Of a stretch of 64,000 bases of DNA, positions 6,417 to 61,291 are shown one piece after another (position 1 is the first letter of the stretch; each line of letters opens with the position of its first letter). The notes beneath the pieces were generated by a model. That model was given only the letters and a program-made list of their open reading frames with translations, was not told the DNA's origin and searched no databases. Position numbers and translations under genes: made by a program. The stretch comes from a virus. The stretch covers positions 117,361-181,360 of IMG/VR virus record IMGVR_UViG_3300037560_000207, one strand, 5' to 3'.

Positions 6417-6928
6417 CCATATTCTTTTGTGTCGTGCTACAAGGTTGTGTAGCACCTGGAGCAATTAAAGCTGAGATTCAAGGCGTTCGCAATGATATGG
6501 GTCAACTTGAAAAAATAGTGGATCAAAAAGCTGATAATTCCGTAGTTGCTGAAAAGATAGATGAAGTTAATAATAATATCGAACAGGTTGCCCAGATTGC
6601 CGAAGAATTATCTCTCTGGCGTACAAACGTGAAAGCGAAAACAATTAATTACGGGGGTGGAGGATGGATTGTACTTGGCACTGGTATTATAGTTTTAATT
6701 TTTGTGGGAGCTGGTTTTTTGTTCATTAGAGCGTTTATTAAACGTGGTAATTCTCTAAGTCTTTTAACTTGTGCCATTCAAAAAGTTGGAAAATATTCAC
6801 CAGCATCCGTAACTAATATAAAAGCACAATTAAAGAAAGAAATACAAGAGGGACAATTTAAAGAAAAAGACAGGCAAAATTTGGGAAAATTTGCTAAAAA
6901 AATTGGAACTTTTACGGAACAAAAATAA
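6386..6928 (+). CDS. Lipoprotein with coiled coil and internal membrane segment
   Basis: The N-terminus is a basic stretch, a hydrophobic run and LQGC, a good lipobox, so Cys about 22 would be lipidated. A heptad-like segment (about 25-75) suggests a coiled coil. A second hydrophobic stretch (about 92-115, after GGGG) looks like a membrane helix, followed by a basic C-terminal region. AAAGGAAG precedes the ATG. Function unknown. A cell-envelope role such as lysis or superinfection exclusion is possible but not shown. Confidence 0.65.
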   Translation: MFRAAKAAIVTIFFCVVLQGCVAPGAIKAEIQGVRNDMGQLEKIVDQKADNSVVAEKIDEVNNNIEQVAQIAEELSLWRTNVKAKTINYGGGGWIVLGTGIIVLIFVGAGFLFIRAFIKRGNSLSLLTCAIQKVGKYSPASVTNIKAQLKKEIQEGQFKEKDRQNLGKFAKKIGTFTEQK

Positions 6929-6936
6929 GCTTTGAA

Positions 6937-6947
6937 GGTATAATAGG
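6937..6947 (+). promoter_or_regulatory. Possible promoter -10 element GGTATAATAGG
   Basis: This lies in the 95-base gap before the FmdB-like gene. TATAAT is at 6939-6944 with no TTGACA-like element 17 bases upstream. The same 11 bases recur at 24531-24541, preceded by nearly the same TTTGRA. It may be a middle or early phage promoter. No transcript data are available. Confidence 0.4.
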
Positions 6948-7023: not shown

Positions 7024-7329
7024 ATGCCCCATTATGATTACCTGTGCAAAGCTTGTGGTTACGAATTCGAAGCATTCCATGCAATGTCAGCGGAATCATT
7101 TATAGATTGTCCAAAATGCCATGAACCAAAACTTATTAAGTTAATTGGCATGGGATTAACACCTATTATTCGTAATACCAAAACTCCGTGTCATGGGGGT
7201 AGACAACTTGGAGATCGGTTAGGTAGGGGTAAAAATAAAAGTGAAAAACCATTTTGGAGAAATGGTTTAATTGATAAAAAAATACTGAAAAATCCAGATA
7301 AATATATCAAAAAAGGAAGGGTAGATTGA
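7024..7329 (+). CDS. FmdB-family zinc-ribbon protein
   Basis: The N-terminus MPHYDYLCKACGYEFE followed by a second CPKC pair about 20 residues later is the FmdB putative regulatory zinc ribbon. The remaining residues are basic. The ribosome site CAAGGAG is clear. It is the first gene after a 95-base gap that may hold a promoter, and its stop overlaps the next ATG. In phages such proteins are usually unassigned small regulators or nucleic-acid binders. Confidence 0.75.
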   Translation: MPHYDYLCKACGYEFEAFHAMSAESFIDCPKCHEPKLIKLIGMGLTPIIRNTKTPCHGGRQLGDRLGRGKNKSEKPFWRNGLIDKKILKNPDKYIKKGRVD

Positions 7330-11550: not shown

Positions 11551-12143
11551 GCCCGTTAGAATTTATCGAAAAGGGTATTCGTGAAGGTAACTGGAAAACA
11601 GTTTGTGAAGGATATAAACGCCTTACTGGGAAAGCTTTATCTATTCCTATGTTATCAGTAAATGATAGTGTTAAAAATGCACTGCGCAAAATCTCAGAAA
11701 TAGCATCCGTTGCCACAGATCAATTAACTGGCACTGTTCAATCTATACCCATTAAGACAAGTCAGTATGAAACTGAAACTAAAACAATATCAAAGAAAAA
11801 AAGTGGCCGACCAAAAGGAAAAGGGAAAAAAACAACAAAGAAGAAATCAACCGAAGAAGATTCTTCTCTTGTCTTAGATGAGAAGAAAAAGACAATTGTT
11901 CAAAGGGAAATTGGAGGAACACAATTAATTACTAATGAACCTGATCCAAAAGAAGTTGAACAGAATATAGTTAAGGCGAAGAAAGCCAATCAAAATAAAA
12001 TTAAACTCGATCGAAAAACTACTACAACCCATGATGTGAAATGCAATGAATGTGAAAATACATTTAAATCAGATCGGCCAAAAGGTGAAATAGGACAAAA
12101 ATGTAATAAATGTTTAATAGAAAAGAAAAGTAGATTTGTTTAA
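11547..12143 (+). CDS. Basic DNA-binding-like protein with C-terminal zinc ribbon
   Basis: 198 residues. After a helical N-terminus come a Lys-rich stretch with GRPKGKGKK (an AT-hook-like motif around residue 88) and a C-terminal CNEC...CNKC pair that could bind zinc. It overlaps the helicase gene start exactly, so helicase or primase support is possible but unproved. No family is recognised. Confidence 0.5.
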   Translation: MSPLEFIEKGIREGNWKTVCEGYKRLTGKALSIPMLSVNDSVKNALRKISEIASVATDQLTGTVQSIPIKTSQYETETKTISKKKSGRPKGKGKKTTKKKSTEEDSSLVLDEKKKTIVQREIGGTQLITNEPDPKEVEQNIVKAKKANQNKIKLDRKTTTTHDVKCNECENTFKSDRPKGEIGQKCNKCLIEKKSRFV

Positions 12144-13585
12144 TGAGTAATAAGTCAAACGCAATACTTCAAGATTCAGGCATGGAACGAGCAGTTCTAG
12201 CAGGAATTACTACACATGGTGCCAATTGCTTTTTCGAAGTAGAAGATATTATTGGTATCCAAGATTTCTATTGGATGTACAATCAAGAACTCTTCAAAAT
12301 TCTTGCTTATCTAGTTCATCAAAAAGATACCAAAACCTTTGATATTCCAAGCATTCAGGCAGTAGCCAAAATTCTAGGATACGGTGATTTTGCAAATGGT
12401 GGTAAACATTTAGAATATCTCGAAGCCATTATCGATGAAGTGGGTTTATCTAGAGAAAATATTAAAACATTGGTTGTAACAATATATAAACTTTCACTAG
12501 CACGACGTGGATATTTAGTAGCAGCCACGATTCAAAAGAGTCTCAAAAAAATCACAGGTGCAGAAGATGTAGATAATATCATCGGTCAAATCGAAGAACC
12601 CGTATTCGAATTTACTGGCCAAATTATGACCCAAGGCGCTGGTGTAGTATCTCTTGGAAAGAAATTCAAGAGTACAATGAAAGTTTTATCAGAAACGCCG
12701 CAAGATATAGTTGGATTACCCACAGGTTTCCCCGCTTGGGATAATGCGATAGGCGGTGGATTCAGACCCGCAACGGTTAATGTTATTGGTGCTAGAGCAA
12801 AACAAGCGAAGAGCTTTTTCTGTATAAATGTAGCTCGTAATATGGCTGAAAATGGAATTCCTGTTTTATATCTTGATACTGAACTTACAAGTGAAACACA
12901 ATTACATCGTCTTGCTTCTCTTATCTCTGGTGTTGAATTAAATCATGTTGAAACTGGTCAATTTATAAATAATCCACATGAATCAGAGGCAATTTGGGAT
13001 TGTCAAGAACATATGGAAAATCTATCTATCGATCATTTTTCTGTTGCTGGTCTTTCACCACAGGCTATTATGTCAATTTGTCGTAGATGGTTATCTAAAA
13101 CGGTTGGATTCACTGATAGTGGTACAGCGAAACCTTGTTTGATTATTTATGATTACATCAAATTAATGAATGATACTGCTTTTAAGCATAGTTTACAAGA
13201 ATATCAATTACTTGGTTTTCTAATTACTGCTTTGCACAATTTTGCTGTTAAATTTAAATTATCCATCTTGGCGACAGTTCAACTTAATAGGGACGGCGTT
13301 GAAAAAGAAGGAGCAGAAGTTATTTCTGGCTCTGATAGGATTGTATGGTTGTGTAGTAATTTTACAATTCTAAAACAGAAGATTCAAACTGAATTGAATG
13401 AAGATTGTCCCACAAATGGTACAAAGAAATTAGTAGTAACCGATACTAGATATGGTCCAGGTATGGAAAGTGGTGAATATATTAATGTGATTGATCATTT
13501 GGAAGTTGGCAAGTTATCAGAAGGGAAACCCTTCTCAATGGTGGCACAATCTATTTTGAAAAATCAGACTAATGCAGTGGTTTAA
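12143..13585 (+). CDS. DnaB-like replicative helicase
   Basis: Unwinds DNA at the phage fork. An N-terminal DnaB-like domain is followed by a RecA fold: GLPTGFPAWDNAIGGGF, then Walker A GARAKQAKS (216-224), YLDTELTSE, LIIYDYIKLM (Walker B) and a Gln-containing motif (TVQLNRDG). At 480 residues it is close to T4 gp41 and DnaB. The glycine normally before the P-loop Lys is Ala. A homing endonuclease and the primase follow. Confidence 0.88.
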   Translation: MSNKSNAILQDSGMERAVLAGITTHGANCFFEVEDIIGIQDFYWMYNQELFKILAYLVHQKDTKTFDIPSIQAVAKILGYGDFANGGKHLEYLEAIIDEVGLSRENIKTLVVTIYKLSLARRGYLVAATIQKSLKKITGAEDVDNIIGQIEEPVFEFTGQIMTQGAGVVSLGKKFKSTMKVLSETPQDIVGLPTGFPAWDNAIGGGFRPATVNVIGARAKQAKSFFCINVARNMAENGIPVLYLDTELTSETQLHRLASLISGVELNHVETGQFINNPHESEAIWDCQEHMENLSIDHFSVAGLSPQAIMSICRRWLSKTVGFTDSGTAKPCLIIYDYIKLMNDTAFKHSLQEYQLLGFLITALHNFAVKFKLSILATVQLNRDGVEKEGAEVISGSDRIVWLCSNFTILKQKIQTELNEDCPTNGTKKLVVTDTRYGPGMESGEYINVIDHLEVGKLSEGKPFSMVAQSILKNQTNAVV

Positions 13586-13588
13586 ATA

Positions 13589-14230
13589 ATGCTTAATTTA
13601 ATTGGACAAAAATTTGGAAGATTAATTGTTATTCAAAGAATGAATAATGATAAACATAAAAAGACACAGTGGTTATGTAAATGTAATTGTGGCAAAGAAA
13701 CAATAATAATTGGTTCCCATTTAAAAAGTGAAAATACTAGAGGTTGTGGGTGTCTTAAAAAAGAAATGATAACACAACGTTCAACAATACATGGTCATGC
13801 AAAAAGCAATAAAAAATCGTATATTTATAAAACATGGATTCATATGATTCAACGATGTACTAATCCTAACGATAAGAAATATCCAATATATGGAAATCGA
13901 GGAATTACTATTTGTAAACGATGGATGAAATTCTTAAATTTTCTTAAAGATATGAGTGAACCCCCAACAAATAAACACTCGATTGATAGGATTAATAATA
14001 ATGGTAATTATTGCAAATCTAATTGTAGATGGGCAACAAGAAAAGAACAAGCTAGAAATACAAGGAAAAATCGTTTAATTTCATTTAATGGTAAAATTCA
14101 ATGTATGTCTGCTTGGGCAGAAGAACTATATATAGATAAAAGTACCCTTTGGTCACGACTCAATAGTGGTTGGTCAATAGAAAAAGCATTAACAACACCA
14201 ATAAAAAAATGCAAAAAGGAATTATTATGA
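13589..14230 (+). CDS. AP2/HNH-type homing endonuclease
   Basis: 213 residues. Starts LIGQKFGRLIV, then a zinc ribbon (CKCNCGK... GCGC), the core YKTWIHMIQRCTNP...YGNRGIT...RW, and DRINNNGNYCKSNCRWAT with HNH-like residues. The C-terminal half has a DNA-binding helix (WSRLNSGWSIEKAL). It sits between helicase and primase, a typical homing-gene spot. Its last codons (AAAAAGGAATTA) form the ribosome site of the primase. Paralogues occur at 27138 and as fragments at 2-64 and 35397. Confidence 0.85.
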   Translation: MLNLIGQKFGRLIVIQRMNNDKHKKTQWLCKCNCGKETIIIGSHLKSENTRGCGCLKKEMITQRSTIHGHAKSNKKSYIYKTWIHMIQRCTNPNDKKYPIYGNRGITICKRWMKFLNFLKDMSEPPTNKHSIDRINNNGNYCKSNCRWATRKEQARNTRKNRLISFNGKIQCMSAWAEELYIDKSTLWSRLNSGWSIEKALTTPIKKCKKELL

Positions 14231-15837: not shown

Positions 15838-16776
15838 ATGCGAATAGTTAAATCTAGTGCAAGCTCAATTAATCTGTATCGCCATTGTCCTTTCAGTTAT
15901 TATTTACAATATATTTTAGGTATGGAATCGAAAGCTGGCAAAGCTGCACTTCAGGGAAATATTGTTCACAAAGTTTTACAATTTATGGCCAGACGAAAGA
16001 AAAGAGGAAAAAGGGATATTGACCCGATGCAGCTTTTGGATTGGGCTTGGGATAAACTTACTATAAAATCTCCAGAAATAGAAATCCGTAAAGTAACGAC
16101 CAGGATAGATAAAGAAACTGATGACTTCAAAGAAGCTGCTGATTTTAAGAAATGTCGTGTTGCACTTGAAACTGTATTAGCTGATGTTTTTTATAACCCA
16201 TACAATCTCAAAGTACTAGATACAGAAGAATGGTTTGCCTTGGAAATGCCAGGAAATGAATGGAAAAGTTTAAATCAAGATGGAAAAATGCATCAATTCG
16301 CTATACGCGGTTATATTGATCTTGTACATGAAATTGATGAAGAAACTATAGAAATTGTTGATTGGAAAACTGGGAAAAGAACGAGCTTTTATACACAAAA
16401 ACCAATCGATGAAGAAGTATTGATGAGAGAAATCCAACCACGACTTTATCATTTAGCAGCATATTTTCTATATCCAAAATATAAGAATATCTTGATTACT
16501 TTCTACTATACGAATGATTCTGGCCCAATCACCATAGCCCTATCTCAAGATGACTTGATAATAACTATTACAGCTCTCCATCGTTTTTTTACCACAGTTA
16601 AGAAAGATACATTGATACGCAGAAATAGAAGTTGGCAATGTAAAATGTGCTCATTTGAACGTAGCGGTATGTGTCATCGAGTTTGGTCTGATCTTTGTAC
16701 GATGGGAAGTGAATATATTGAAAATCGTTATGCCCAGCTTGATTATAAAGATCAATTGGCGATAGGGAAACCATGA
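15838..16776 (+). CDS. PD-(D/E)XK nuclease, Cas4/RecB-like (second copy)
   Basis: 312 residues. Cys17 in RHCPFSYYLQY near the N-terminus plus C-terminal Cys268, Cys271 and Cys279 (CKMC...MC) repeat the Fe-S pattern of Cas4/AddB. The catalytic site shows DWKTGK (Asp175, Lys177) within EIVDWKTG. It is a distant paralogue of 5032-5985. Location between the dNTP enzyme and the polymerase suggests exonuclease work in recombination or replication. ATG 15838 follows AAATAAAGG. Confidence 0.83.
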   Translation: MRIVKSSASSINLYRHCPFSYYLQYILGMESKAGKAALQGNIVHKVLQFMARRKKRGKRDIDPMQLLDWAWDKLTIKSPEIEIRKVTTRIDKETDDFKEAADFKKCRVALETVLADVFYNPYNLKVLDTEEWFALEMPGNEWKSLNQDGKMHQFAIRGYIDLVHEIDEETIEIVDWKTGKRTSFYTQKPIDEEVLMREIQPRLYHLAAYFLYPKYKNILITFYYTNDSGPITIALSQDDLIITITALHRFFTTVKKDTLIRRNRSWQCKMCSFERSGMCHRVWSDLCTMGSEYIENRYAQLDYKDQLAIGKP

Positions 16777-17081
16777 AATTAACCTATGGACAACGAAAAG
16801 CTCTGAAATTTCTTCGAGATGATGAAGAATATGGAGATATGGTCCATGAACCGGGAAGTGGTTGGTGGTTAGGAACTCATAAAATAAATGGTAAATTAGC
16901 ATTAAGTTTAATACGATTATGTCTAGTAACCAGAGAACAATGGAGTAATTCCAGTAAATATGAACGATGGGGAATCAACGGAACTGGTCTTAGAGCTTTG
17001 GATGGTAAACCTCCTTACACCAAGGCAGATGGTACATATGTGGACAATTTACACGAAGTTGGAGACATATATAATGAGTAA
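16773..17081 (+). CDS. Hypothetical protein
   Basis: 102 residues starting MKLTYGQRKALKFL, which looks like a small winged-helix segment. It contains WGINGTGLRAL and a Gly-rich turn. Start and stop overlap the flanking genes, so it is probably co-translated with the nuclease and polymerase. No family recognised. Confidence 0.6.
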   Translation: MKLTYGQRKALKFLRDDEEYGDMVHEPGSGWWLGTHKINGKLALSLIRLCLVTREQWSNSSKYERWGINGTGLRALDGKPPYTKADGTYVDNLHEVGDIYNE

Positions 17082-19431
17082 GAAAACTTATATTCCTCTT
17101 CACGTACATTCGTACTACTCATTATTGGACGGACTTTGTTCTCCAAAAGATATCATTGATCGGTGTGTAGAACTAGAATTGCCAGCTTGCGCCGTCACGG
17201 ACCATGGTACCATAGCATCGATGAAAGTATTTTATGATGCTGCTAAGAAAAAGAAGATTAAGCCTATCATCGGATGTGAATTATACATTTGTGAACAAGA
17301 CCCTACTATAAAAAACAATACAAATAACAAACGACATCATTTAATTGTTTTAGCAAAGAATGATCAAGGTATTAAAGATTTAATGTCATTGGTATCGGAG
17401 ACCAATAAACCTGAATATTTTTATCGTAAACCACGAATTCATTTGGAAGGTATTGCTCCATTTGCTAAGCAAGGTAATCTAATCTTTTTAACAGCATGTA
17501 TCGCTGGACAATTACCAATGTCATTATTCACTGATTTTAAAGCAGCTATCATGGCAGGAAGAAATTATAATATTGCTGGGGCAAAAGAATATCTAAAACC
17601 TAATTGGAAAGAAGTTGGTAAGGAGATTATCTATAAACATTTAGCTATTTTTGGAGAAGGTAACTTTTTTCTTGAACTTCAAGATGAAGGTATGGGAATT
17701 CAGGCTGTTGTGGTAGAATGCCTAAGAGAACTCAGCATAGAAACTGGAGTACCAACAGTAGCTACAATTGATGCTCATTATTGTCGAAAAGAAGATGCTG
17801 AAGATCAGAGACTTCTTCTGTTTGCTCAGCTTCACACAACAAAAGAGGCTCAAGACTATAAAATAGCTAGTGGTTTAGATGTTATGGATTTCTTCATCTC
17901 AGACAACTATTATATCCCTTCTAATGAAGAAATGCGACAGAAATTTACTGAGAATGAGCTTAAAACCACCCTTGACATAGCAGATCAAATTGAATATTCG
18001 TCATTGGGACATTCACCTTATTTGCCTATCTTTACTAATGATGAAGCAAAAAAGCTCGGACTTGATTCAAATGATTATCTGAGATATCTTTGTATAGAAG
18101 GTGCTAAAAAGAAATTGACACATCTTGATCCAGCGCAAAAGAAATTATATTGGAAGAGATTACAAAGAGAACTTATCGTAATTCAAGAAGCAGGATTAGC
18201 TGATTATTTTTTGATTGTTTGGGATGTATGTCGATTTGTGGATGAAAAGAATGGACCAAGGGGTAAGGGAAGAGGTTCTGGCGCTGGTTCACTGGTAAAT
18301 TACCTTACTGGAATTACCGGCATTGATCCTATCGAATATGGATTATACTTTGAAAGATTTTATAATTCAGGCCGTAATATTCTACCCCATTTTGATGTCG
18401 GGCAAATGGATTTTATGGCATGGATGTCAGATAATTTTGAATTACTTCATACCCGCGATATAGATAATGAACGCAAGTTTGTGTCCAGACATTTAGCCGG
18501 ACGGATAAAGCAGAATAAGGGGGGATGTTATGAATTTACATTCACAGATATAATGCGAGAAGAAGTTGAATGGATTGATGAAAATAATTCTCGTATGTGG
18601 ATGTACTTATATGATATGATTCAAGAAAAGCCAGCAGCTAATCCTTCAAATTCTCATCTTGCATATGGTCTTGGTATGACATTGGCAGGTCCAGATGAAT
18701 TAGATATAAATCGTAAAGTTAAAACACATAAGGGTCATATTAGTCTTCCCGATATTGATACAGATATAGGAGTGGTTTTTCGTAATGAAGTAATTACTTA
18801 CCTCAAAAAACGATGGGGAGATGAATATGTAGCTCAAATGATCACATTTGGTAGACTTCAAGGTAAAGCGGCTCTTAAAGAAGTATTTCGTGCTCAACCA
18901 GATACCGTAAGACATTTAATGAGAGTCAAGGCTGTCAAAGAAGGAAAAGATGCGGATGATATTCACATGACTCCACATGATCTGTGTAATGATATTACAC
19001 AATATATTCCAGATGAAGCATCAATTGCTGATGAATTGAGGCAAGCGCGATTAGAACAAGGAGATGACTATGGAATTCTACAATGGGCGATTCATCATAC
19101 AGAACAAGTGCGAGATGCATATGAGTGGTATAAGCCATTATTTGATCAAGCCATGAGAATCGAAGGAACTAAAAAATCTCAATCGAAACATGCTGCTGGT
19201 GTGGTAATTGCTGATAGACCAATCGAGGAATTAGTACCATTGGTTTATGATGCAAAGAATAAAGATCGTGTTGTTGGTTTAGAAATGTATAATGCTGAAG
19301 ATATGGGTGCTGTAAAATTTGATTTTCTTGGTGTAGTAGCGCTGGATAAATTATGGATGGCTCAGGATTTGATTAATAATTGTAATAACGAGGAAGTGTT
19401 AAAAGAGGGATTAGTAGAGGTAATAGAATGA
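17074..19431 (+). CDS. dnaE: DNA polymerase III alpha (DnaE), N-terminal half
   Basis: 785 residues. An N-terminal PHP domain is intact (HVHS 10-13, LDG, DHG 43-45, CELY, LTACIAG, DAHYC), so it may bind metals. The palm shows GRGKGRGSGAGSLVNYL, PDIDTDIG (D562, D564) and VKFDFLG (D750), giving all three catalytic aspartates. An insert of about 120 residues (about 435-556) separates the GRGSGAGS block from PDIDTD. The protein stops about 35 residues after D750. The rest of alpha is encoded at 24545-27136. No split-intein sequence is seen at the end. ATG 17074 has GGAG upstream. Confidence 0.88.
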   Translation: MSKKTYIPLHVHSYYSLLDGLCSPKDIIDRCVELELPACAVTDHGTIASMKVFYDAAKKKKIKPIIGCELYICEQDPTIKNNTNNKRHHLIVLAKNDQGIKDLMSLVSETNKPEYFYRKPRIHLEGIAPFAKQGNLIFLTACIAGQLPMSLFTDFKAAIMAGRNYNIAGAKEYLKPNWKEVGKEIIYKHLAIFGEGNFFLELQDEGMGIQAVVVECLRELSIETGVPTVATIDAHYCRKEDAEDQRLLLFAQLHTTKEAQDYKIASGLDVMDFFISDNYYIPSNEEMRQKFTENELKTTLDIADQIEYSSLGHSPYLPIFTNDEAKKLGLDSNDYLRYLCIEGAKKKLTHLDPAQKKLYWKRLQRELIVIQEAGLADYFLIVWDVCRFVDEKNGPRGKGRGSGAGSLVNYLTGITGIDPIEYGLYFERFYNSGRNILPHFDVGQMDFMAWMSDNFELLHTRDIDNERKFVSRHLAGRIKQNKGGCYEFTFTDIMREEVEWIDENNSRMWMYLYDMIQEKPAANPSNSHLAYGLGMTLAGPDELDINRKVKTHKGHISLPDIDTDIGVVFRNEVITYLKKRWGDEYVAQMITFGRLQGKAALKEVFRAQPDTVRHLMRVKAVKEGKDADDIHMTPHDLCNDITQYIPDEASIADELRQARLEQGDDYGILQWAIHHTEQVRDAYEWYKPLFDQAMRIEGTKKSQSKHAAGVVIADRPIEELVPLVYDAKNKDRVVGLEMYNAEDMGAVKFDFLGVVALDKLWMAQDLINNCNNEEVLKEGLVEVIE

Positions 19432-20003
19432 ATCGTATTTTTCTAGATGTTGGTTCCCATCATGGACAAACAATAGAATTCATGTTACAACCACGATTCA
19501 AGATAGATTGCATTTTCGGATTTGATCCATCACCATTGTGCCATGATATTCTGGAACGAAAATTCAGAGCTAATCCGAAAGTTACTATAGTTAAAGCTGG
19601 ACTGTGGTCTAAGACATGTGAAATGGACCTACATAACGAAGGTAGTCAAGGGGGTAGTGTCTACGAAGACTATCAGACAACATGTAATCCAGAACCTCGT
19701 ATCACCCACTGCAAATTCATTAAGGCTTCGGACTGGTTTATTGAGTATGTGTCTTCAGATGATGAAGTATTTTTGAAAATTAATGCAGAAGGAAGTGAAT
19801 GTGAGATCGTTTTAGATTTATTAGATTCTGGTGAATATAATAAAGTTAAAGCACTGCTGATAGATTTCGATATCCGTAAGAGTCCATCTCAGAAACACAA
19901 AGAAGATGAATTAAGAGAACGAATGAAGGCGATGGGTATCAATAATCTTCATATCTATATGGGTGATAATCGACATATTATTCTATTCTCTGTTGTGCGA
20001 TAA
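19428..20003 (+). CDS. FkbM-family methyltransferase
   Basis: 191 residues: FLDVGSHHGQT (SAM-binding), FGFDPSP, VKAGLWSK, and EVFLKINAEGSECEIV, the FkbM signature. It probably methylates sugars or a small molecule. It overlaps the end of the DnaE half (ATGA) and is the first of the inserted glycan gene block. A similar gene is at 23251. Confidence 0.8.
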   Translation: MNRIFLDVGSHHGQTIEFMLQPRFKIDCIFGFDPSPLCHDILERKFRANPKVTIVKAGLWSKTCEMDLHNEGSQGGSVYEDYQTTCNPEPRITHCKFIKASDWFIEYVSSDDEVFLKINAEGSECEIVLDLLDSGEYNKVKALLIDFDIRKSPSQKHKEDELRERMKAMGINNLHIYMGDNRHIILFSVVR

Positions 20004-20012
20004 AGGAAAATA

Positions 20013-20762
20013 ATGACAAAACCTAAGATATGGATTTACTGGGATCATCCATTGGGACAAACAGAAACACCGGCTTACATACAATTATGTTGGGAGACTA
20101 TCAAAAAGTATTGTGGCACAGACTTTGATATTCATTTAGTAACTACTGAAAATGTGAGACAATTTTTGCCTAATATATCTGAGAGTTTTTTCCACATTGC
20201 ACAGATCAATAATAAATCAAATTTTTTACGATATACATTATTGAAAGAACATGGCGGCATCTGGCTAGATAGTGACTTGATTTTGTTTCAAAGCCTAAAA
20301 CCAATGCTTGACTTATTAGAAGATGACATTGATCTGGTGGCAACTGCTTCTCCAACACTTAAGTACGGAGAACCTGAATGTGGATTTTTACTATCAACAA
20401 AAGGTGGAACAGTAATAACCAAAGCTGTTTCTATCATTGAGTATGCTTTGAGCCTTCAAAAACCAGGACATATTTTTAAATGGGGATCATTGGGGCCAAG
20501 AACGATTCGCCAAGCCGTAAAAGGTCGTAGATATCATCATCTCGATTATCGTTTATTAATGCCTATTCCATCATGGGAAGCTTATCGATTCGGTGGCAAA
20601 GAATCAATGGGAAAATGCTGTATTGAAGGATCATATGGTTGTATGCTTTTCCATGAAATGTTTAAACAATATAACCATCCAATTCTACGAATGAATCGTC
20701 AACAATTACTTGAATCACCAATCCTCTTAGGGAAGATGTTCAGAAAGGCAGTTACAAGCTGA
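20013..20762 (+). CDS. Glycosyltransferase, GT-A with DxD motif
   Basis: 249 residues, starting KIWIYWDHPLGQ. A sugar-transferase fold is indicated by NNKSNFLRYTLLKEHGG followed by IWLDSDLILF (the DxD metal site), as in GT32/capsule glycosyltransferases. It transfers a sugar from a nucleotide donor. The ribosome site AAAGGAA precedes ATG 20013. It is part of the first glycan block. Confidence 0.78.
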   Translation: MTKPKIWIYWDHPLGQTETPAYIQLCWETIKKYCGTDFDIHLVTTENVRQFLPNISESFFHIAQINNKSNFLRYTLLKEHGGIWLDSDLILFQSLKPMLDLLEDDIDLVATASPTLKYGEPECGFLLSTKGGTVITKAVSIIEYALSLQKPGHIFKWGSLGPRTIRQAVKGRRYHHLDYRLLMPIPSWEAYRFGGKESMGKCCIEGSYGCMLFHEMFKQYNHPILRMNRQQLLESPILLGKMFRKAVTS

Positions 20763-21712
20763 TGAAGATTAGAGCGACAATAGTACATATATCTACTCCG
20801 CTGAGAATGCGACCAATTGTTGCAACACTAATAAGGCATGGGCATGTATTCACTGACCAAAAGATTCCAGATGCCGATTTGTGGCTGGTTGATTGTATGC
20901 ATCCTCACAAGATAGATGATGCCACTATTGAAGAATTGATTCAATTTCGTGGACAAATCATGCTTGTATCTCTCGGTGATTGGAGTTCATTCAACACGCA
21001 AATGGAGGGTAAAGGTCTTCCTGATGAAGTAATCGATAAAGTGGTAGCATTTGCAAAAATTCAATGGACTCTTGAGATTACCGATTATGATCCTCGCATT
21101 ATAGGCAAACAGATTATAATGCAACCATTTTTAATTAGTGGTCTCCCAGAACCGATGACCAGCAAAAAGCCTATAGCATCATTCTATGGATTACCAACTG
21201 GTGATCTAGAAACAGAAAAAAATCTACGCATTAGGGCTTGTCGAATACTGAAAAATAAATCATGGTTCCAAGGTGGTATTGTAGGACAGGAACCTGGTGC
21301 GCAACGAAACATATCAGGGGTTGAAATTGGACATAGACCTCGCCCATTCTATCTTAATTCTATTAACCAATCACTTGTGTCATTATGTATGCCTGGAAAC
21401 AGTATCTTGACTTATCGTCATTTCGAAAGTATGGGGATGAAATCATGCGTTGTTTCCTGTTGTCTAAATCAATTCAGATGGTTAAATCGCATGGTTCCAG
21501 GACAGCACTATTTGGATATTTTACCAGATTTATCTAATCTGCTAGATGTTTGTGAACAGGCTATTTCTGACAAAAAGACCACGTTGCAAATCGCACAGAA
21601 GGGATATGATTTGTATCAAGCGTACTATCGTCTATTACCAGACGGTAGTATGACAGATGCAATGTGGGCTGACATTACACAACAGTGGAAACAAATGGGG
21701 ATACAGATATAA
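20762..21712 (+). CDS. Putative glycosyltransferase-like protein
   Basis: 316 residues without a DxD that I can place. The C-terminal half (CMPGNSILTYRHFESMGMKSCVV and LPDLSNLLDVCEQAI) has the feel of a GT-B donor site or exostosin-like domain, so glycan work is likely from context. Its stop overlaps the start of the next gene (TAATG). Confidence 0.5.
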   Translation: MKIRATIVHISTPLRMRPIVATLIRHGHVFTDQKIPDADLWLVDCMHPHKIDDATIEELIQFRGQIMLVSLGDWSSFNTQMEGKGLPDEVIDKVVAFAKIQWTLEITDYDPRIIGKQIIMQPFLISGLPEPMTSKKPIASFYGLPTGDLETEKNLRIRACRILKNKSWFQGGIVGQEPGAQRNISGVEIGHRPRPFYLNSINQSLVSLCMPGNSILTYRHFESMGMKSCVVSCCLNQFRWLNRMVPGQHYLDILPDLSNLLDVCEQAISDKKTTLQIAQKGYDLYQAYYRLLPDGSMTDAMWADITQQWKQMGIQI

Positions 21713-22544
21713 TGTATGATGAAAGTAAAATGTGCTTTATGACAGTAGCCAATGAATTATACCAGGAATATATACCGTGGTTTCTATATTTTTTAGATAT
21801 GGCATATCCCAAAGCACACAAACTCATACTATTAGATGGCATAATTACAGATGATGTAAAACAGGTATTATCATCAATATCTGGTAATTTTAAAATTAAA
21901 GAGCAGGCATTTCCCGAATATACAAAAACTGATGCTAAAACCATTAAGTGTTTAAGATGGCTAGTATATGAGCCTGAGTTTAATCAATACGATTGCCTAT
22001 CAATTGGCGACATTGATATGGCAATTTGAAAGAATCCCCATCTTATATGCAACAACATTTGACACATTGTGATTTACTCAATATACCTTACAGTAATTGC
22101 ATTCGCGCAGATTCTAAACCTAAACGAATGTGCGGAATACATATTGTTAAACCACGGGAATGGTTTAAGGCAATGAGACCAATTATTGATAAATATCGTC
22201 CAATGCTCAAAGCCGGTGAAATAAAATTATCATCAATAGGATTCAACGAAATATTATTATTGCGTATGATAATAGAATCAAATCTTGGTGAACCACCACC
22301 CAACTTATCTCCAACTTATTGGTCTTCTATGGTTACATCACATCATCATGGAATTCATCTTCAATTGGCTCAACACTCAATTGATAAATTTAAAAAATCC
22401 AAAGGATATACCAAACGAAAATCAGAATTTCTTGCTGCTTGTCGAACTGACTTATTCAATGAATTACGAATACAATCACCTAAAATTGGTTCAGTGCTAA
22501 ATTCGATCGCTAAATCTTACGACCCTAAAGGAGCTATCAAATGA
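21712..22544 (+). pseudogene. Frameshifted glycosyltransferase
   Basis: Two abutting frames read as one glycosyltransferase. The first (21712-22029) ends CLSIGDIDMAI with stop TGA, where GDID is the metal motif. The second (22026-22544) resumes KESPSYMQQHL and carries the acceptor half (RMCGIHIVKPREW). A one-base loss near GCAATTTGA explains this. No canonical slippery heptamer is seen, so it is a real break, an assembly error, or unusual recoding. The joined protein would be about 277 residues. RNA and reads would settle it. Confidence 0.7.
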
Positions 22545-23254
22545 ATGGAATATTTTATGTTGCTTTTGGTAAACAATATGACTATCAATGCACTCATTCA
22601 GTTATTTTGGTAAGAAAGTATAGTGATATTCCAGTTAGGGTAATAACCGACCTTGCTGTTGACCAAAGGTGTAAAAAATGGGATAATGTATCGAACGTAT
22701 CTTTTGAAAAAGTGAATGCTGAACGAAATAAAAATAGATATTACAAAATTCGACCAGATTTATTCTCGCCGTTTGATATCACACTGTTCTGCGATACTGA
22801 CACCGCTGTTCAGTCAGCAGAATTTTTAGATGGATTTGCCATAGCACAAAATCATGATGTAATGTTTTCTGTCTATCAACGAATTGGGAAGGGTGGGCAT
22901 GGTCTGCCTATGGTGTGGTTATATGGGAAGTTTATGAAACCAGAAAACTATCCGGCAACTATCTATAAGGAAGGCGTTTTCTTTTTCCGTAAAACCGAGA
23001 ATACTAGAAAATTGTTTGAGGCATGGGAGAATTACTGGAGATTACTTGGTTGTGGGCGAGATATGCCGGCATTGTTTCCTGCGACAACAAAAGCAACAAA
23101 TTTGAATCTTGGCATTTTACCCCCAGGTTGGGACAATAGAGATGGACATATTATAGTTCATGCGTTTGGTAACTATAAAACGAAAGGTCTGCCGATCATT
23201 ACCAAATATAAACCTGATGACAAGAACCAAAATAAATGGAGGGATATAAAATGA
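22541..23254 (+). CDS. Glycosyltransferase with DTD motif
   Basis: 237 residues. FDITLFCDTDTAVQS is a DxD metal site of GT-A type, and the C-terminal LGILPPGWDNR and IIVHAFGNYK resemble GT8-like or nucleotide-diphospho-sugar transferases. The start follows AAAGGAGC. It follows the broken glycosyltransferase and overlaps the next FkbM gene by 4 bases. Confidence 0.75.
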   Translation: MNGIFYVAFGKQYDYQCTHSVILVRKYSDIPVRVITDLAVDQRCKKWDNVSNVSFEKVNAERNKNRYYKIRPDLFSPFDITLFCDTDTAVQSAEFLDGFAIAQNHDVMFSVYQRIGKGGHGLPMVWLYGKFMKPENYPATIYKEGVFFFRKTENTRKLFEAWENYWRLLGCGRDMPALFPATTKATNLNLGILPPGWDNRDGHIIVHAFGNYKTKGLPIITKYKPDDKNQNKWRDIK

Positions 23255-23880
23255 ATCAACTTCATCTCAGTAGGTGTAACCGTTATTTGTTTTTTGCAGA
23301 GAATGTTCTTCCGAAGAAACCAATCTTTATTGATGTTGGATCAAGAACTGGTATTCATGCCATTGCTCTTCTAGAAAAATTCAAAAGTTTAATTATTGTT
23401 TATGAGGCATGTGCGAAAAACTATCATACTTTGTGTCAAGCTGTATCTGGATCAACAATTGTTACTCATCAATCAGCCGTGACCGGAAAAGATGGTGAAA
23501 TTGATTTCTTTAGATTTGCTAGTGCATCTTCCAACAGTATTTATCCAAGACATCAGAAAGAAGTAGGCATGAAATTACAACAGCAGACTAAAGTTAAATC
23601 GGTTAGTATAGAATCTATATTGACAGCAAACGATCTTTCTCACATAGATATTCTATTTTGTAATTGTGAAGGTGCAGAACTTGGAATAATAAACGAAATT
23701 TTGAGCAAACCCCATTTACGAAATCGATTGGGGCAACTTTGTATTTCTTTTCACGGTGAAAGAATTTATCCACAAGCACAAACAGTTAATGCTATTGAAA
23801 AAATGTCTGTATATTTTTTGGTAATTACAGAGAACAACGATTATCCATGTCATCTATTCGTCAATAAAAATCTTGTGTAA
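23251..23880 (+). CDS. FkbM-family methyltransferase
   Basis: 209 residues from ATG 23251 (GGAGGGAT upstream); an in-frame ATG at 23236 has no ribosome site. FIDVGSRTGIHAI (SAM site) and ILFCNCEGAELGII (the FkbM motif) are clear. A sugar or polyketide-type O-methyl transfer is typical. It overlaps the previous gene's stop. Confidence 0.8.
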   Translation: MNQLHLSRCNRYLFFAENVLPKKPIFIDVGSRTGIHAIALLEKFKSLIIVYEACAKNYHTLCQAVSGSTIVTHQSAVTGKDGEIDFFRFASASSNSIYPRHQKEVGMKLQQQTKVKSVSIESILTANDLSHIDILFCNCEGAELGIINEILSKPHLRNRLGQLCISFHGERIYPQAQTVNAIEKMSVYFLVITENNDYPCHLFVNKNLV

Positions 23881-23910
23881 GTAATAGATTATTCTAAAAA
23901 GGAATGGAAA

Positions 23911-24507
23911 ATGGTTAAGTCTCGTTATATTGTACGAAATGATCCGACAGTAAATTCTGTTGGACGGCATAGTCTTCCTATAAAATCAAGATGGAGTCGT
24001 CCATATGAATATAAATTTGCCATGATATGGGCAAAGCCTGGACTTCGGATGGTAGATGCCGCATCTGGTGGTGGAACACATCCATTCTGCCATTACTTAG
24101 CAGATATTGCACCAGGATTAGTTATTGCCGTAGATCAAACTATATGGTCTGTTGAAGAAAATTCAGGTCTTGTATATCATCAAACTTCAATGACGAATAT
24201 ACCACTAGATCAAAACTCGGTGGATATAGTGTTTAGTATTTCGGTTATAGAACATTGTACGAACGAAGTAATCAAGAATTTCTTTGCCGAAACTACAAGA
24301 ATTCTGAAAACTGGAGGGCTGTTCATTATTACACAAAATACGGGTTCTGTATATCCAGGCAGAACACCATCATGGTCAGCACAAGAACTTAGCAAAGCTG
24401 GATTCTTTTATGAACAACTTACAAAAAGTAATAATATACCAGATGATGCAATTACAAAATATCAGCCGCCAAGATGGTGTTATCGTTGGGCATGTAAAAA
24501 ACTCTAG
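23911..24507 (+). CDS. SAM-dependent methyltransferase (type 11)
   Basis: 198 residues: LRMVDAASGGGTHPF (SAM-binding motif I), VIAVDQT, FSISVIEHCTNE and ILKTGGLFIIT fit a class I methyltransferase. AAAGGAATGG precedes the ATG. It is the last gene before the C-terminal polymerase half. Its target is unknown. Confidence 0.8.
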   Translation: MVKSRYIVRNDPTVNSVGRHSLPIKSRWSRPYEYKFAMIWAKPGLRMVDAASGGGTHPFCHYLADIAPGLVIAVDQTIWSVEENSGLVYHQTSMTNIPLDQNSVDIVFSISVIEHCTNEVIKNFFAETTRILKTGGLFIITQNTGSVYPGRTPSWSAQELSKAGFFYEQLTKSNNIPDDAITKYQPPRWCYRWACKKL

Positions 24508-24530
24508 TAAAACAATATGATTGATTTGGA

Positions 24531-24541
24531 GGTATAATAGG
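24531..24541 (+). promoter_or_regulatory. Possible promoter -10 element GGTATAATAGG
   Basis: TATAAT is at 24533-24538, immediately before the C-terminal polymerase gene, with TTTGGA just ahead. Same 11 bases as at 6937-6947. GGAGG at 24528-24532 could also act as a ribosome site, so promoter and leader overlap. No -35 element is recognisable. Confidence 0.4.
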
Positions 24542-24544
24542 ATA

Positions 24545-27136
24545 ATGATCGAGTTCGTGAATTGTGAATGTAAAGTCGAAAAGGGTGAATTCAATATCAA
24601 CAATATCCCTCTTAATTGTCCTGCTGTATGGCGACTTATCGGGGGTGGTCATACAGTTGGAATTTTTCAACTTGAGACAAAATTAGGTCAAGATTGGGCT
24701 GCAAAGGTACGACCTGATAGTATTGAGGAATTAGCTGCCTTAGTGAGTCTTCTTCGACCCGGACCATTAGAATGTCTCAGTGGTGATACACATATTACAA
24801 AAGGAAGATTTTTTGATAAAAGGGTAAATAAATATAAATTTTCCTATGTAATCATGAAAGATTTATATGAAAAATTTTTATTTTGGGAAAAATCAAAACA
24901 TAAAGGAAAAGCACAAAAAGGATTATCAATATTATCGGTAAATGAAGATACTAGGAAAATATTCAAAAATACCATTAAAAAAGTGATAAAAACCGGTACG
25001 CAAAAGGTTTATAAATTAAAACTAAAACTTACATTGTCACGATATAATTATAATAGAAAACGATTTTATACAATAAAAGCCACAGACGGACATAGATTTT
25101 TAACACAAAACGGCTGGAAAGAACTCTGGGAATTATGTTCCGGTGATTACATAGCTGTTATCAACCAAAATTTTGGACGCATTGATAGAAAAGATAGAAT
25201 GGCAATTGAGGGATTAAAGATTTTTAGAGATATTTGTTTATTCAATTATCAATATAAATGCCTTTTCTGTAATTGGAATTTGGGAACATTAGATGTAAAT
25301 CATATAAATGGAAATAGATATACTGACAATAGCCCAGATAATCTATGTTTTTTATGCCCAAATCACCATAGAATGTATACAGAAGGAATGATAACACAGG
25401 ATGACATATTACAAAAATTACCTGATGTAACGTTGCCCAACAAAAATGACATAAGATGGGTTTTATATGAAGGGAAAGAAGATTGTGGTGAAGAAGAAAC
25501 ATATGATATTGCTGTCGATGGTCCATTCCAGAATTATATAGCGTCAAGTGTTATCGTACATAATTCAGGTATGTCACAAGATTATGCTGATATTAAATTT
25601 GGTCGCAAAAAACATTCCTATTTACATTCATCTTTAAAGTCAATTTTAGAATCAACTTATGGCTGTATGGTATTTCAAGAACAAGCGCTGCGCATTGCTA
25701 CTGATGTGGCTGGATTTAATCCTATAGAGGCAGATACACTTCGAGCCGCAATCGGAAAGAAAAAGGCTGAACTTATGGCCAAATTAAAACCAAAATTTAT
25801 TAAAGGATGTCAAAATCATAGTAAAATTGGTAGAGGTATAGCTGAAGAAATTTTTGGCTGGATTGAAAAATGTCAGCGCTACTCGTTTAATAAAAGTCAC
25901 GCTTTAAGTTATGGGATGATTGCTTATCAAACCGCTTGGCTAAAATGTCATTTTCCACATGAATTTTTCACTAGTTATCTGACCTACTCTCAATATAAAG
26001 GTGACCCAAAAGAAGAAATTTATAAATTGGTACAGGATGCCAGATTATTTGGTGTTGATATTTTTCCCCCAGATATTCGGCGTGGTAATATTCACTTTCA
26101 AATGATTGAAGAACCTCAAAAAGGCGTAGCATTCGGTCTGGCGCATGTTAGGGGTGTCGGGGCTTCAGCAATCCAAAAGATCGTCTCAGCAGTCACGGAA
26201 ACGTCAGAAATAAGCTCTCTGGAGACTTGGGGTAACTTTCTTTCAGCGGTTCCCGATTTTCATAGAGATGTAGGTATTGCTTTAATTAAATCCGGTGCTT
26301 GTGATTGTTATAATATGCAACGTAGTGAAATGGTGCGCGAACTTGAAGTAGTATTAGGAACTACTGTCCATGATGAGACCGGAAAAAGAGTTGAAGCTAA
26401 AGGGTTGACAAATAAAGAGAAGCTTTACTTTTTCGAACAACTCCGAAAGGACGAAATGACCACTAGAGACATTTTGTTACAAATGGCCCAACCTCCAGGA
26501 AACAAAACAAAGACTATAAGCCAAATGAATAAACAAGAATTGGTAATAGCAGCCGTCGAATATCTTGATCAAGTTGCCGTTGCTTTTGATGGGGTGGTAT
26601 ATACTCCTGATGATTTAAAAAGCCAGACCAAAAAAGAAATTGAGGAATTGATGCTACAAAATGGTTATAAGAATGTAGTAATCAAACCCCCATGTTCAAG
26701 TGATACCAGACGCAAAAAAGTAGCATCCAAAGCGGAAATGTTAGAAAATCCATTAGAAGATACTAATAGAGTAAGTTCTGTGGCAGAAAAGCATTTCTTA
26801 GGTATTGCTTTATCGTGTTCCCCGGCTGATGATGCAGATGATAGTTTTGCAACCCATACTTGTTTAGAAATTGCCAAAGCATCAAACAATGAAGCTATTG
26901 CTGTTTGCGCAATTATTGATAATGTTAAATATACAAAAACCAAGCGTGGACGTAATCCAGGTCAATCAATGTGCTTTTTAACGATGTCGGATTCTACTTA
27001 CTCAATTGACGCTGTAGTATTTCCTGATGCATTTGAACGATTAAAGGCATTTTGCAAAAATGATTTAATTTGTTTGATATATGGGGATAAGAAAAAAGGC
27101 AGTTTTATAATACGTGATATTCAAAAGTTAATTTAA
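24545..27136 (+). CDS. dnaE: DNA polymerase III alpha (DnaE), C-terminal half, with intein
   Basis: 863 residues including a 264-residue intein (77-340). The N-terminal extein starts at the alpha segment after VKFDFLG: IPLNCPAVWRLI, GHTVGIFQLE and LLRPGPLE; after the intein follow SGMSQDYADIKFGRKKHSYLH, GCMVFQEQALRIA, FNKSHALSYGMIAYQTAWLK, later HhH-like (GVGASAIQKI) and OB-fold-like regions near the C-terminus. Residues needed for catalysis are in the other half, so both must associate. ATG 24545 is chosen; a TTG at 24521 is possible. A homing endonuclease follows. Confidence 0.87.
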   Translation: MIEFVNCECKVEKGEFNINNIPLNCPAVWRLIGGGHTVGIFQLETKLGQDWAAKVRPDSIEELAALVSLLRPGPLECLSGDTHITKGRFFDKRVNKYKFSYVIMKDLYEKFLFWEKSKHKGKAQKGLSILSVNEDTRKIFKNTIKKVIKTGTQKVYKLKLKLTLSRYNYNRKRFYTIKATDGHRFLTQNGWKELWELCSGDYIAVINQNFGRIDRKDRMAIEGLKIFRDICLFNYQYKCLFCNWNLGTLDVNHINGNRYTDNSPDNLCFLCPNHHRMYTEGMITQDDILQKLPDVTLPNKNDIRWVLYEGKEDCGEEETYDIAVDGPFQNYIASSVIVHNSGMSQDYADIKFGRKKHSYLHSSLKSILESTYGCMVFQEQALRIATDVAGFNPIEADTLRAAIGKKKAELMAKLKPKFIKGCQNHSKIGRGIAEEIFGWIEKCQRYSFNKSHALSYGMIAYQTAWLKCHFPHEFFTSYLTYSQYKGDPKEEIYKLVQDARLFGVDIFPPDIRRGNIHFQMIEEPQKGVAFGLAHVRGVGASAIQKIVSAVTETSEISSLETWGNFLSAVPDFHRDVGIALIKSGACDCYNMQRSEMVRELEVVLGTTVHDETGKRVEAKGLTNKEKLYFFEQLRKDEMTTRDILLQMAQPPGNKTKTISQMNKQELVIAAVEYLDQVAVAFDGVVYTPDDLKSQTKKEIEELMLQNGYKNVVIKPPCSSDTRRKKVASKAEMLENPLEDTNRVSSVAEKHFLGIALSCSPADDADDSFATHTCLEIAKASNNEAIAVCAIIDNVKYTKTKRGRNPGQSMCFLTMSDSTYSIDAVVFPDAFERLKAFCKNDLICLIYGDKKKGSFIIRDIQKLI
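24773..25564 (+). mobile_element. Intein with HNH endonuclease in the polymerase C-half
   Basis: 264 residues, starting CLSGDTHI (Cys1) after RPGPLE and ending VHN before Ser (SGMSQ). DGHRFLTQNGWKEL is a Hint-type block. An HNH motif replaces LAGLIDADG: CLFCNW, DVNHINGN and PDNLCFLCPNHH (about residues 239-280 of the protein). Removing it restores the continuous alpha sequence RPGPLESGM. HNH inteins are less common than LAGLIDADG ones. Confidence 0.9.
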
Positions 27137-27137
27137 A

Positions 27138-27773
27138 ATGCCAAAATTAATTGATTTGATTGGGAAAAAATTTGGAAGACTCGTTGTCTTGGAACGGGTT
27201 GAAAATAGCAAAAATAAACAAACTAGATGGTTATGCCAATGCAATTGTAAGGATGAAAATGAGATAATTGTTCAAGGTGGTAATCTCAAAAATAGTAATA
27301 CCCAAAGTTGTGGATGTCTATCGAAAAATAATGCTTTGAAACATGGCCATCGTAATGATGAAATTTATACGATATGGTCAGCAATGATTCAACGTTGTAC
27401 TAATCCTAATAATAAAGATTACAAAAATTATGGCGGACGAGGAATTACGGTTTACGAACGATGGATGGAACCCGAAAATTTTATTAAAGATATGATAAAG
27501 AAAAGGGAGCCTGGGCTTACACTCGAACGAATAGATAATAAACTAGGATATTCTAAAGATAATTGTGAATGGACCATCTATGAAAAACAAAATAGAAATA
27601 AACGAAATAATCGTTACGAAACATATAAAGGAAAACGATGGCTTTTTATAGAATTATGTAAAGAATATAATGCGCCTTATCACATTGTCTATAATAGGTA
27701 TTATAGACTCGACTGGACTTTAGAAGAAGCCCTTATGATACCAGTAAAAAAATATAAAAAAAAAGAAAAATAA
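27138..27773 (+). CDS. AP2/HNH-type homing endonuclease
   Basis: 211 residues, same plan as 13589-14230: LIGKKFGRLVV, zinc ribbon (CQCNCKD...CGC), YTIWSAMIQRCTNPNNKDYKNY, GGRGIT, ERIDNKLGYSKDNCEW and a C-terminal WTLEEAL helix, then a Lys-rich tail. It starts one base after the polymerase stop, a typical insertion next to a core gene. The following gap (27774-27855) holds a palindrome. Confidence 0.85.
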   Translation: MPKLIDLIGKKFGRLVVLERVENSKNKQTRWLCQCNCKDENEIIVQGGNLKNSNTQSCGCLSKNNALKHGHRNDEIYTIWSAMIQRCTNPNNKDYKNYGGRGITVYERWMEPENFIKDMIKKREPGLTLERIDNKLGYSKDNCEWTIYEKQNRNKRNNRYETYKGKRWLFIELCKEYNAPYHIVYNRYYRLDWTLEEALMIPVKKYKKKEK

Positions 27774-28622: not shown

Positions 28623-29042
28623 ATGGCAGAATTAAGTGTATTTGGTGTTGGCGTAGCAACAGCAGACCCTGAATTGAGGTATGTTGGACAGAACAAAACA
28701 GCATTATGTACTGTCAACCTAGCTTTCAATCGGAGTTTCCGTGACAAGGAACAAAATTGGCAGACAGAAGCTTGTTTTTTAAGGGCTCAGGTCTGGGGTA
28801 ATCGGGCCGAGAAAATGGCCGAACTCGTCAAAAAGGGTCAGCCAATTTATGTTAGTGGTTATATGAAACAGGATTCGTGGGAAAATGACGATGGCCAGAA
28901 AAGAGTCTCGTATTCATTAAGTGTCCGAGACTTCCAACTGTGCGCCAAAAATGGAAAGAATAAGGATGAGGCGAAGAAAACAAATAAGGCTGAAACATCA
29001 GAACCCCCTCCGATGGAAAATGATGAATCGATACCATTCTGA
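28623..29042 (+). CDS. ssb: Single-stranded DNA-binding protein
   Basis: 139 residues with an OB fold: VGVATADPELRYV, FNRSFRDKEQNW, FLRAQVWGNRAEKMAELVKKG and YVSGYMKQDSWEND match the bacterial SSB fold. The acidic tail ends ENDESIPF, the typical partner-binding tip. Coats ssDNA at the fork. AAAGGCG precedes the start. Confidence 0.92.
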   Translation: MAELSVFGVGVATADPELRYVGQNKTALCTVNLAFNRSFRDKEQNWQTEACFLRAQVWGNRAEKMAELVKKGQPIYVSGYMKQDSWENDDGQKRVSYSLSVRDFQLCAKNGKNKDEAKKTNKAETSEPPPMENDESIPF

Positions 29043-37984: not shown

Positions 37985-38459
37985 ATTTAGTAAAGCTTTA
38001 GTATTTTATAAAGCAAAAAAAGATGGGAATGGGGCAGCAAGCCAATGGTCTCTAAGTTCAGAGAAAAACTCAATATTTTTAGAAATGACAAATCAAAAAG
38101 GCAAAGATGAAAATAACAATGCTAGATTTGACTGGGAAAATAAAATCAGATTCAAACTCGATGAAACTGATATTGGTGAAATTTTAGCTGTTCTAATGAA
38201 TCTTCAGAATGGAATCGGCCCGTTTGACACAGACAAAAAGAAGCATAAGGGACTCTTTCATTCGAACCCAAAAGGAAATGCTATTCTATATTTTGGAAGA
38301 GATGCAACAATGGAGGAACATGGGAGATTTCATGTATATTTAAGCGTTAAAAGAGGGGACGACCAAACTGTAGTACGACACACCATTAGTAAAGGAGAAG
38401 CATGTATTTTGAGCACTCTTCTTCGTCGGGCTATTGAGGTGATGTATCGGTGGGGTTAA
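37974..38459 (+). CDS. Putative PC4/whirly-like ssDNA-binding protein
   Basis: 161 residues. A beta-rich core (RFKLDETDIGEILAVLMN, AILYFGRDA, VYLSVKRG) and a C-terminal helix (SKGEACILSTLLRRAIEVMYRW) resemble PC4-like phage ssDNA-binding proteins. CAGGAGG precedes the ATG. Last gene of the plus arm. Its stop codon overlaps that of the opposite gene. Confidence 0.4.
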   Translation: MANEFSKALVFYKAKKDGNGAASQWSLSSEKNSIFLEMTNQKGKDENNNARFDWENKIRFKLDETDIGEILAVLMNLQNGIGPFDTDKKKHKGLFHSNPKGNAILYFGRDATMEEHGRFHVYLSVKRGDDQTVVRHTISKGEACILSTLLRRAIEVMYRWG

Positions 38460-38812: not shown

Positions 38813-38813
38813 T

Positions 38814-60801: not shown

Positions 60802-60875
60802 TGGGCCTAGAGAGATTTGAACTCCCGACACCCGGTTCCGTAGACCGGTGCTCTAATCCATTGAGCTACAAGCCC
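60802..60875 (-). tRNA. tRNA-Arg (anticodon ACG)
   Basis: Complete cloverleaf: acceptor GGGCTTG with TAGGCCC, D-arm TAGCTC..GAGC, anticodon stem CCGGT/ACCGG with loop CTACGGA, T-arm GGGAG TTCAAAT CTCTC, discriminator A. The A34 would need deamination to inosine. Confidence 0.9.
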
Positions 60876-60879
60876 TCAA

Positions 60880-60952: not shown

Positions 60953-60956
60953 ATAA

Positions 60957-61280: not shown

Positions 61281-61291
61281 TTTAAATCTCC

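What the first reader, a model, noticed from the sequence alone, without database searches (positions are those of the whole stretch)
17074..27136. DNA polymerase III alpha split into two genes by a 5 kb glycan block
17074-19431 carries the PHP domain and all three catalytic aspartates (D562, D564, D750), then stops. 24545-27136 continues the same protein from IPLNCPAVW onwards. The 5.1 kb between them holds FkbM and type 11 methyltransferases and glycosyltransferases. Unlike cyanobacterial DnaE, no split-intein parts are visible at the break, so the two proteins would have to associate non-covalently. The first inserted gene overlaps the N-half stop (ATGA), so the block is built into the operon. 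Split phage alpha subunits with cargo between the halves are, to my knowledge, undescribed.
Basis: partly seen in the sequence, partly recalled or inferred. Interest (0 to 1): 0.82.

Follow-up and report, generated by a model that had tools for sequence, protein, structure and literature searches.

The report
Phage DNA polymerase in two genes
A large, uncultivated group of bacterial viruses carries its main DNA-copying enzyme as two separate genes, and the gap between them has been used as a slot for other genes (a proofreading gene in one branch, 5-17 kb of sugar-making genes in this one); this matters because such an enzyme has to be rebuilt from two pieces in every infection.

Summary
Window 17074-19431 (PHP domain, palm, catalytic Asp triad) and 24545-27136 (fingers, HhH, OB) together cover E. 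coli alpha residues 5-1054, with a seam at about 577-584 and nothing lost. Eight same-strand ORFs, several for sugar and methyl transfer, lie between them. No intron or split intein was found at the break.

It is not an accident of this genome. About 20 related IMG/VR contigs (N-half 53-82% identical) are all split, with 5-17 kb of variable glycan genes between the halves. A second clade (about 42% identical, 32 loci) is split at the same place around a DnaQ-like exonuclease. On the tree the whole group forms one clade (100/100), so the split predates the glycan block, which did not cause it. Both halves are under strong purifying selection. The C half has its own conserved promoter-like element, which would explain how cargo of any size is tolerated.

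Most likely this is an obligate, non-covalently assembled two-chain replicase. Assembly was not tested. Split phage alphas were already reported (Iyer 2021; Microbacterium cluster EF), so 'undescribed' is too strong. The conserved palm/finger split with exchangeable cargo I did not find described.

The parts
17074..19431 (+). DnaE N half, 785 aa: PHP domain, palm, catalytic D560/D562/D750; tail 771-785 predicted disordered
19428..20003 (+). first cargo gene, 191 aa, FkbM-like by eye (no Pfam hit); overlaps the N-half stop (ATGA)
20013..20762 (+). cargo: glycosyltransferase (Caps_synth / Gly_transf_sug)
20762..21712 (+). cargo: conserved protein, no Pfam hit, present in several relatives
21685..22544 (+). 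cargo: two ORFs (21685-22029, 22026-22544) that form one ~277-aa gene in relatives
22541..23254 (+). cargo: 237 aa, no Pfam hit
23236..23880 (+). cargo: FkbM methyltransferase (PF05050)
23911..24507 (+). cargo: type 11 methyltransferase (PF08241)
24511..24538 (+). promoter-like element AACAA-N15-GGTATAAT, 6 nt before the C-half ATG; conserved in most cargo-clade members
24545..27136 (+). DnaE C half, 863 aa with intein, 599 aa spliced: fingers, HhH, OB; N-terminal CxC extension
24773..25564 (+). complete intein with HNH endonuclease domain inside the C half (not at the break)
6916..6944 (+). second copy of the promoter-like element, upstream of a small FmdB-like gene (7024-7329)
12143..13585 (+). 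DnaB-like replicative helicase, same transcription direction
15838..16776 (+). RecB/Cas4-like exonuclease (phrog_69), conserved neighbour used to find distant relatives
28623..29042 (+). SSB-like gene downstream of the C half (named from its sequence by eye), conserved neighbour in relatives

Best explanation
The phage's only detected replicative polymerase is a DnaE-type Pol III alpha made as two polypeptides that are never joined and assemble non-covalently: N half = PHP + palm with the metal-binding aspartates, C half = fingers (template and dNTP contacts) + HhH + OB. The fission falls in the loop just after the helix that follows the last catalytic aspartate, so each half folds as a unit and the active site forms at their interface. 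The split arose once in an ancestor of this uncultivated lineage, probably with a proofreading DnaQ-like gene between the halves, and in the window's clade the gap became the home of an exchangeable surface-sugar operon of 5-17 kb. Expression of the C half is secured by its own conserved promoter-like element directly before its ATG, so cargo size and content do not affect polymerase output. The inteins in the halves excise themselves and do not join the halves. Shown: split, seam, conservation, clade, selection, cargo variation, conserved element. Inferred: assembly, activity, promoter function, order of cargo gain.
For: Complementary domains with no loss or overlap. N half folds alone with pLDDT 89, ending in a disordered tail at 771-785; C half pLDDT 87; both match Pol III alpha structures as best hits. 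Catalytic residues invariant in 28 N halves across both clades. dN/dS 0.04-0.08 in the pairs where dS is measurable. About 20 records in the cargo clade and 34 loci beyond it are split, none intact. Split clade 100/100. CxC extension of the C half shared by both clades. One N half and one C half per record, no PolB or DnaQ detected in the window's 181-kb record. Promoter-like element. Precedent for activity of such pairs: split NrdA of Aeh1 and gp43A/43B of Aeromonas phage 25 (PMC2988022).
Against: No cultured member of this lineage was found. A non-encoded way of joining the chains cannot be excluded. The relation of L091 to the cargo clade, on which the 'DnaQ was first' order leans, has only 82/71 support. 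The promoter reading rests on conservation and resemblance to a sigma-70 -10 element, not on transcripts.
Confidence: 0.82

Rival explanations
1. The glycan block itself inserted into an intact dnaE and broke it.
For: The block sits exactly at the seam; the first cargo gene overlaps the N-half stop.
Against: A distant clade with no glycan block is split at the same place, in one clade with the window's group (100/100). No flanking repeats beyond chance-level matches.
Confidence: 0.05
2. The halves are joined after all: split intein at the break, or trans-spliced RNA from a split intron.
For: Inteins are common in both halves in this clade, one of them (L005) at the cyanobacterial split-intein site.
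Against: N-half tails are only ~8-25 variable residues after the last helix with no conserved Cys; C-half starts lack a conserved Asn-Cys/Ser junction (K-C in L002). No Rfam family up to E = 1 in 17000-27300. The inteins found are complete in cis.
Confidence: 0.04
3. The halves no longer form a replicase; the host polymerase copies the phage and the genes are decaying or do something else.
For: No activity data; no DnaQ-like gene detected in the window's record.
Against: Invariant catalytic residues, dN/dS 0.04-0.08, retention across deep divergence, replication neighbourhood (DnaB, RecB/Cas4-like nuclease, SSB).
Confidence: 0.08
4. Assembly chimera or sequencing error.
For: Metagenomic contig.
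Against: Same arrangement in many contigs from different metagenomes, at 5-17 kb distances with different cargo.
Confidence: 0.01

Closest known systems
Split minimal Pol III alpha of group 2.2 jumbo phages (Iyer et al. 2021, PMC7824862)
   Same: Phage Pol III alpha encoded by two separate genes, presumed to reassemble
   Different: There a minimal catalytic core without other Pol III domains, genes distantly located, alongside a family B polymerase; here PHP, HhH and OB are kept, the halves flank one block, and no PolB was found in the record
Microbacterium cluster EF (Krampusvirus) two-gene DnaE (PMC7302621; JDawG genes 55/56)
   Same: Two genes for one alpha in cultured phages
   Different: By gene lengths (345 + 766 aa) the split lies much earlier, near the end of PHP; genes 10 nt apart, no cargo
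Rossellomorea phage phiT1 gp20/gp19/gp18 (PV767480)
   Same: Split at the same palm/finger seam, with a 49-aa ORF between
   Different: Far away on the tree, sister to an intact alpha; a single origin with this lineage is only borderline disfavoured (p-AU 0.055)
Cyanobacterial DnaE split by a split intein
   Same: DnaE in two genes
   Different: Break at EY/CFNKS in the fingers and chains ligated by the intein (from memory; linker residues); here another break and no intein parts at it. One relative (L005) has a complete intein at that cyanobacterial site
Genes in pieces: Aeh1 nrdA/mobE, Aeromonas phage 25 gp43A/43B, MIJ3 PolB (PMC2988022, PMC6892783)
   Same: Essential phage enzyme split into two chains that work together (reported for nrdA and gp43)
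   Different: There the wedge is a homing endonuclease gene, a split intein or a short sequence; here a DnaQ-like gene or a 5-17 kb sugar operon

Membership tests
DnaE-type Pol III alpha | PHP domain and PF07733 palm with catalytic aspartates | tested here: met
DnaE-type Pol III alpha | finger domain PF17657 and HhH | tested here: met
DnaE-type Pol III alpha | C-terminal OB fold | tested here: inconclusive
   Pfam below cut-off (23.9 vs 27 bits), but the profile aligns to E. coli 951-1054
DnaE-type Pol III alpha | single polypeptide | tested here: not met
DnaE-type Pol III alpha | clamp binding and polymerase activity | not testable with these tools
   needs protein
Split-intein DnaE (cyanobacteria) | N-intein at the end of the N half and C-intein at the start of the C half | tested here: not met
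Split-intein DnaE (cyanobacteria) | break at the EY/CFNKS site | tested here: not met
   break lies at E. coli ~577-584
Homing-endonuclease genes-in-pieces | homing endonuclease gene as the wedge between the halves | tested here: not met
   no Pfam HNH/GIY hit among the eight block ORFs of the window; HNH-like genes do occur in the cargo of some relatives (L019, L025)
Split minimal Pol III of group 2.2 jumbo phages | lacks other Pol III domains such as PHP; co-occurs with PolB | tested here: not met
   PHP present; no PF00136 in the record
Intron-split gene | group I/II intron pieces at the break | tested here: not met

The most novel reading that the evidence does not exclude
A permanently two-chain Pol III replicase, inherited over deep divergence in a large phage lineage, whose two conserved halves act as fixed anchors around an exchangeable cargo site: first a proofreading gene, later a sugar operon that recombination can swap while both flanks stay essential.
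Probability: 0.4. Interest if true: 0.75.

Novelty: new variant of a known kind. Interest (0 to 1): 0.62.

Why it matters
It would be a replicative polymerase whose active site is built at the interface of two separately encoded chains, kept across tens of phage genomes. That offers a natural test of how far a C-family polymerase can be taken apart, and a case of an essential gene pair bracketing a variable sugar locus. It also shows that annotation by best hit can hide a split replicase: the genes look like two truncated polymerases.

Tried and rejected
Close-relative protein search with the C half found nothing in IMG/VR; the alignment-based scans worked. A scan of bacterial and archaeal genomes with the N half gave no relative, so no host or prophage link. 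Bacteroides phage DAC19 has a similar exonuclease, but its DnaE is intact and elsewhere. Bacillus phage vB_BpsS-140 looked split but has an overlapping frame break before the palm, probably not the same event. Repeats at the block borders were only chance-level pairs. Generic promoter and terminator scans were at or below shuffle level; the conserved element emerged only by comparison.

Full report
Observation. The two ORFs are at the stated coordinates. hmmscan finds PHP and DNA_pol3_alpha in the first and the finger domain, HhH and a weak OB fold in the second. Profiles of the two halves align to E. coli alpha 5-576 and 585-902 with 951-1054, and the two proteins match consecutive parts of PHROG_405. 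The enzyme is therefore complete in two pieces, with the seam in a loop of about eight residues. AlphaFold models of the halves are confident (pLDDT 89 and 87). The N-half model ends after helix 755-767, and its last 15 residues are unstructured. Foldseek returns Pol III alpha structures for both. Aligned to E. coli, the catalytic residues are D560, D562 and D750, invariant in 28 N halves.

The C half contains a complete intein with an HNH domain at RPGPLE/C...HN/SGM. It interrupts the C half and is not at the break. Relatives L002, L006, L016 and L017 lack it. Other members carry inteins at four further sites. At the break itself there is nothing like a split intein: the N-half tails are short and variable with no conserved Cys, and the C-half starts show no conserved splice junction. 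No RNA family, intron included, matches the region.

Relatives. Scans of IMG/VR with the N half, the C half and the neighbouring RecB/Cas4-like exonuclease gave a graded series. In the window's clade (N-half identity 53-82%) all records with both halves are split: gaps of 5.0 to 9.1 kb within loci and, from record coordinates, about 7.6 to 13.7 kb in further ones. For two records the distance (about 8.6 and 17.3 kb) assumes a circular map. Near-identical contigs occur (for example L002/L003, L046/L047, L048/L055), so the number of independent genomes is lower than the number of contigs. In a second clade (N-half identity 39-43%) 32 loci have a gap of 0.85-0.92 kb with a ~58-aa ORF and a DnaQ-like exonuclease, whose end overlaps or abuts the C-half start in the loci inspected. 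L091 and L093 have gaps of 5.1 and 7.3 kb that also contain a DnaQ-like gene, overlapping the C-half ATG in L091. The exonucleases of the two groups are related (27-30% identity). No DnaQ-like gene was found in the held cargo-clade sequence or in the window's record. Intact alphas are found only further away: Moorella phage MTATph1, Geobacillus phage GBK1 and others.

History. A maximum-likelihood tree of 36 alphas puts all split members of this lineage in one clade (100/100), with the DnaQ clade and the cargo clade each monophyletic. The cultured Rossellomorea phage phiT1, split at the same seam, falls elsewhere. Holding it together with the others is borderline (p-AU 0.055), so an independent origin is likely but not proven. 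The C halves of both clades share an N-terminal extension with a nearly invariant CxC, as expected of one old fission. The split is therefore older than the glycan block. Among cultured phages the seam is nearly always intact: of 1235 records matching a query across it, 1199 cover at least 80% of it in one place, and in 60 rows spread over the ranking phiT1 alone showed two pieces. That tool merges pieces up to about 600 bases apart, so tightly spaced splits may be undercounted.

Cargo. In 14 cargo-clade loci examined no gene in the gap is on the opposite strand, and coding density is 85-100%. The same holds for strand in three more distant members. Families found are glycosyltransferases, many methyltransferases, capsule-synthesis enzymes, radical SAM/SPASM, sulfotransferase, sugar epimerase and mannose-phosphate isomerase. 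Content differs between members, with a recurrent core.

Expression. Upstream of the C half the cargo clade shares GGAACAA-N14-GGTATAAT-N5-ATG. In about 435 kb of clade sequence 15 such sites were found against 0 in 20 random versions; some are the same site seen in overlapping loci, so the distinct number is nearer 11. The window has the same element with one base more in each spacer; several other members keep GGTATAAT with a less exact upstream box, and L005 lacks it. The only other sites lie upstream of a small FmdB-like gene far upstream, in three members including the window. Synonymous sites are close to saturated between these genomes, so this conservation is selective. I read it as a promoter, with a start at or very near the ATG. 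If so, the N half is the last replication gene of one unit, followed by cargo, and the C half the first gene of the next.

Mechanism. Strong purifying selection on both halves (dN/dS 0.04-0.08 where measurable), one copy of each per record and no PolB in the window's record argue for a working two-chain replicase. Precedents for function after such fission exist in NrdA of Aeh1 and gp43 of Aeromonas phage 25 (PMC2988022). Assembly and activity are not shown here.

Novelty. Split phage Pol III alphas are on record in two other forms (PMC7824862; PMC7302621), and phiT1 is annotated as two alpha genes. I found no description of this lineage, of the palm/finger seam being kept over such divergence, or of a replicase gene pair flanking a variable cargo operon. 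The paper library holds open-licence papers only, so absence there is weak evidence.

Noticed in passing
window 24773-25564; L005/L027, L019, L025/L035: The split polymerase is rich in inteins: five insertion sites in this clade (C half: RPGPLE/SGM, ADELRK/IGKKK, RY/SFNKSH, YSFNK/SHA; N half: IIGC/CEMY). L005 has a complete one at the site of the cyanobacterial DnaE split intein.
   Followed up: partly
window 21685-22544: Two overlapping ORFs that are one ~277-aa gene in L002, L005 and L006: a frame break in the window (mutation, sequencing error or frameshifting).
   Followed up: no
window 13589-14230 and 27138-27773: Two similar-looking genes starting 'LIGxKFGRL', resembling free-standing HNH-type endonucleases by eye; relatives of the second also sit inside the cargo of L019 and L025.
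   Followed up: no
window N half, residues ~447-555: About 110 extra residues just before the catalytic PDIDTD strand, present in most of the cargo clade, absent from the DnaQ clade, from L083 and from intact alphas.
   Followed up: partly
window 6916-6944, L002 276, L006 908: The same promoter-like element precedes an FmdB-like zinc-ribbon gene in three members.
   Followed up: partly
L146 (Microbacterium phage JDawG): DnaE annotated as two adjacent genes of 345 and 766 aa, a different split from the one here.
   Followed up: partly
window ~38000-39000 and 60802-62302: GC skew changes sign at about 38-39 kb, suggesting that gene direction switches there; six tRNA genes at 60802-62302 on the minus strand.
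   Followed up: no
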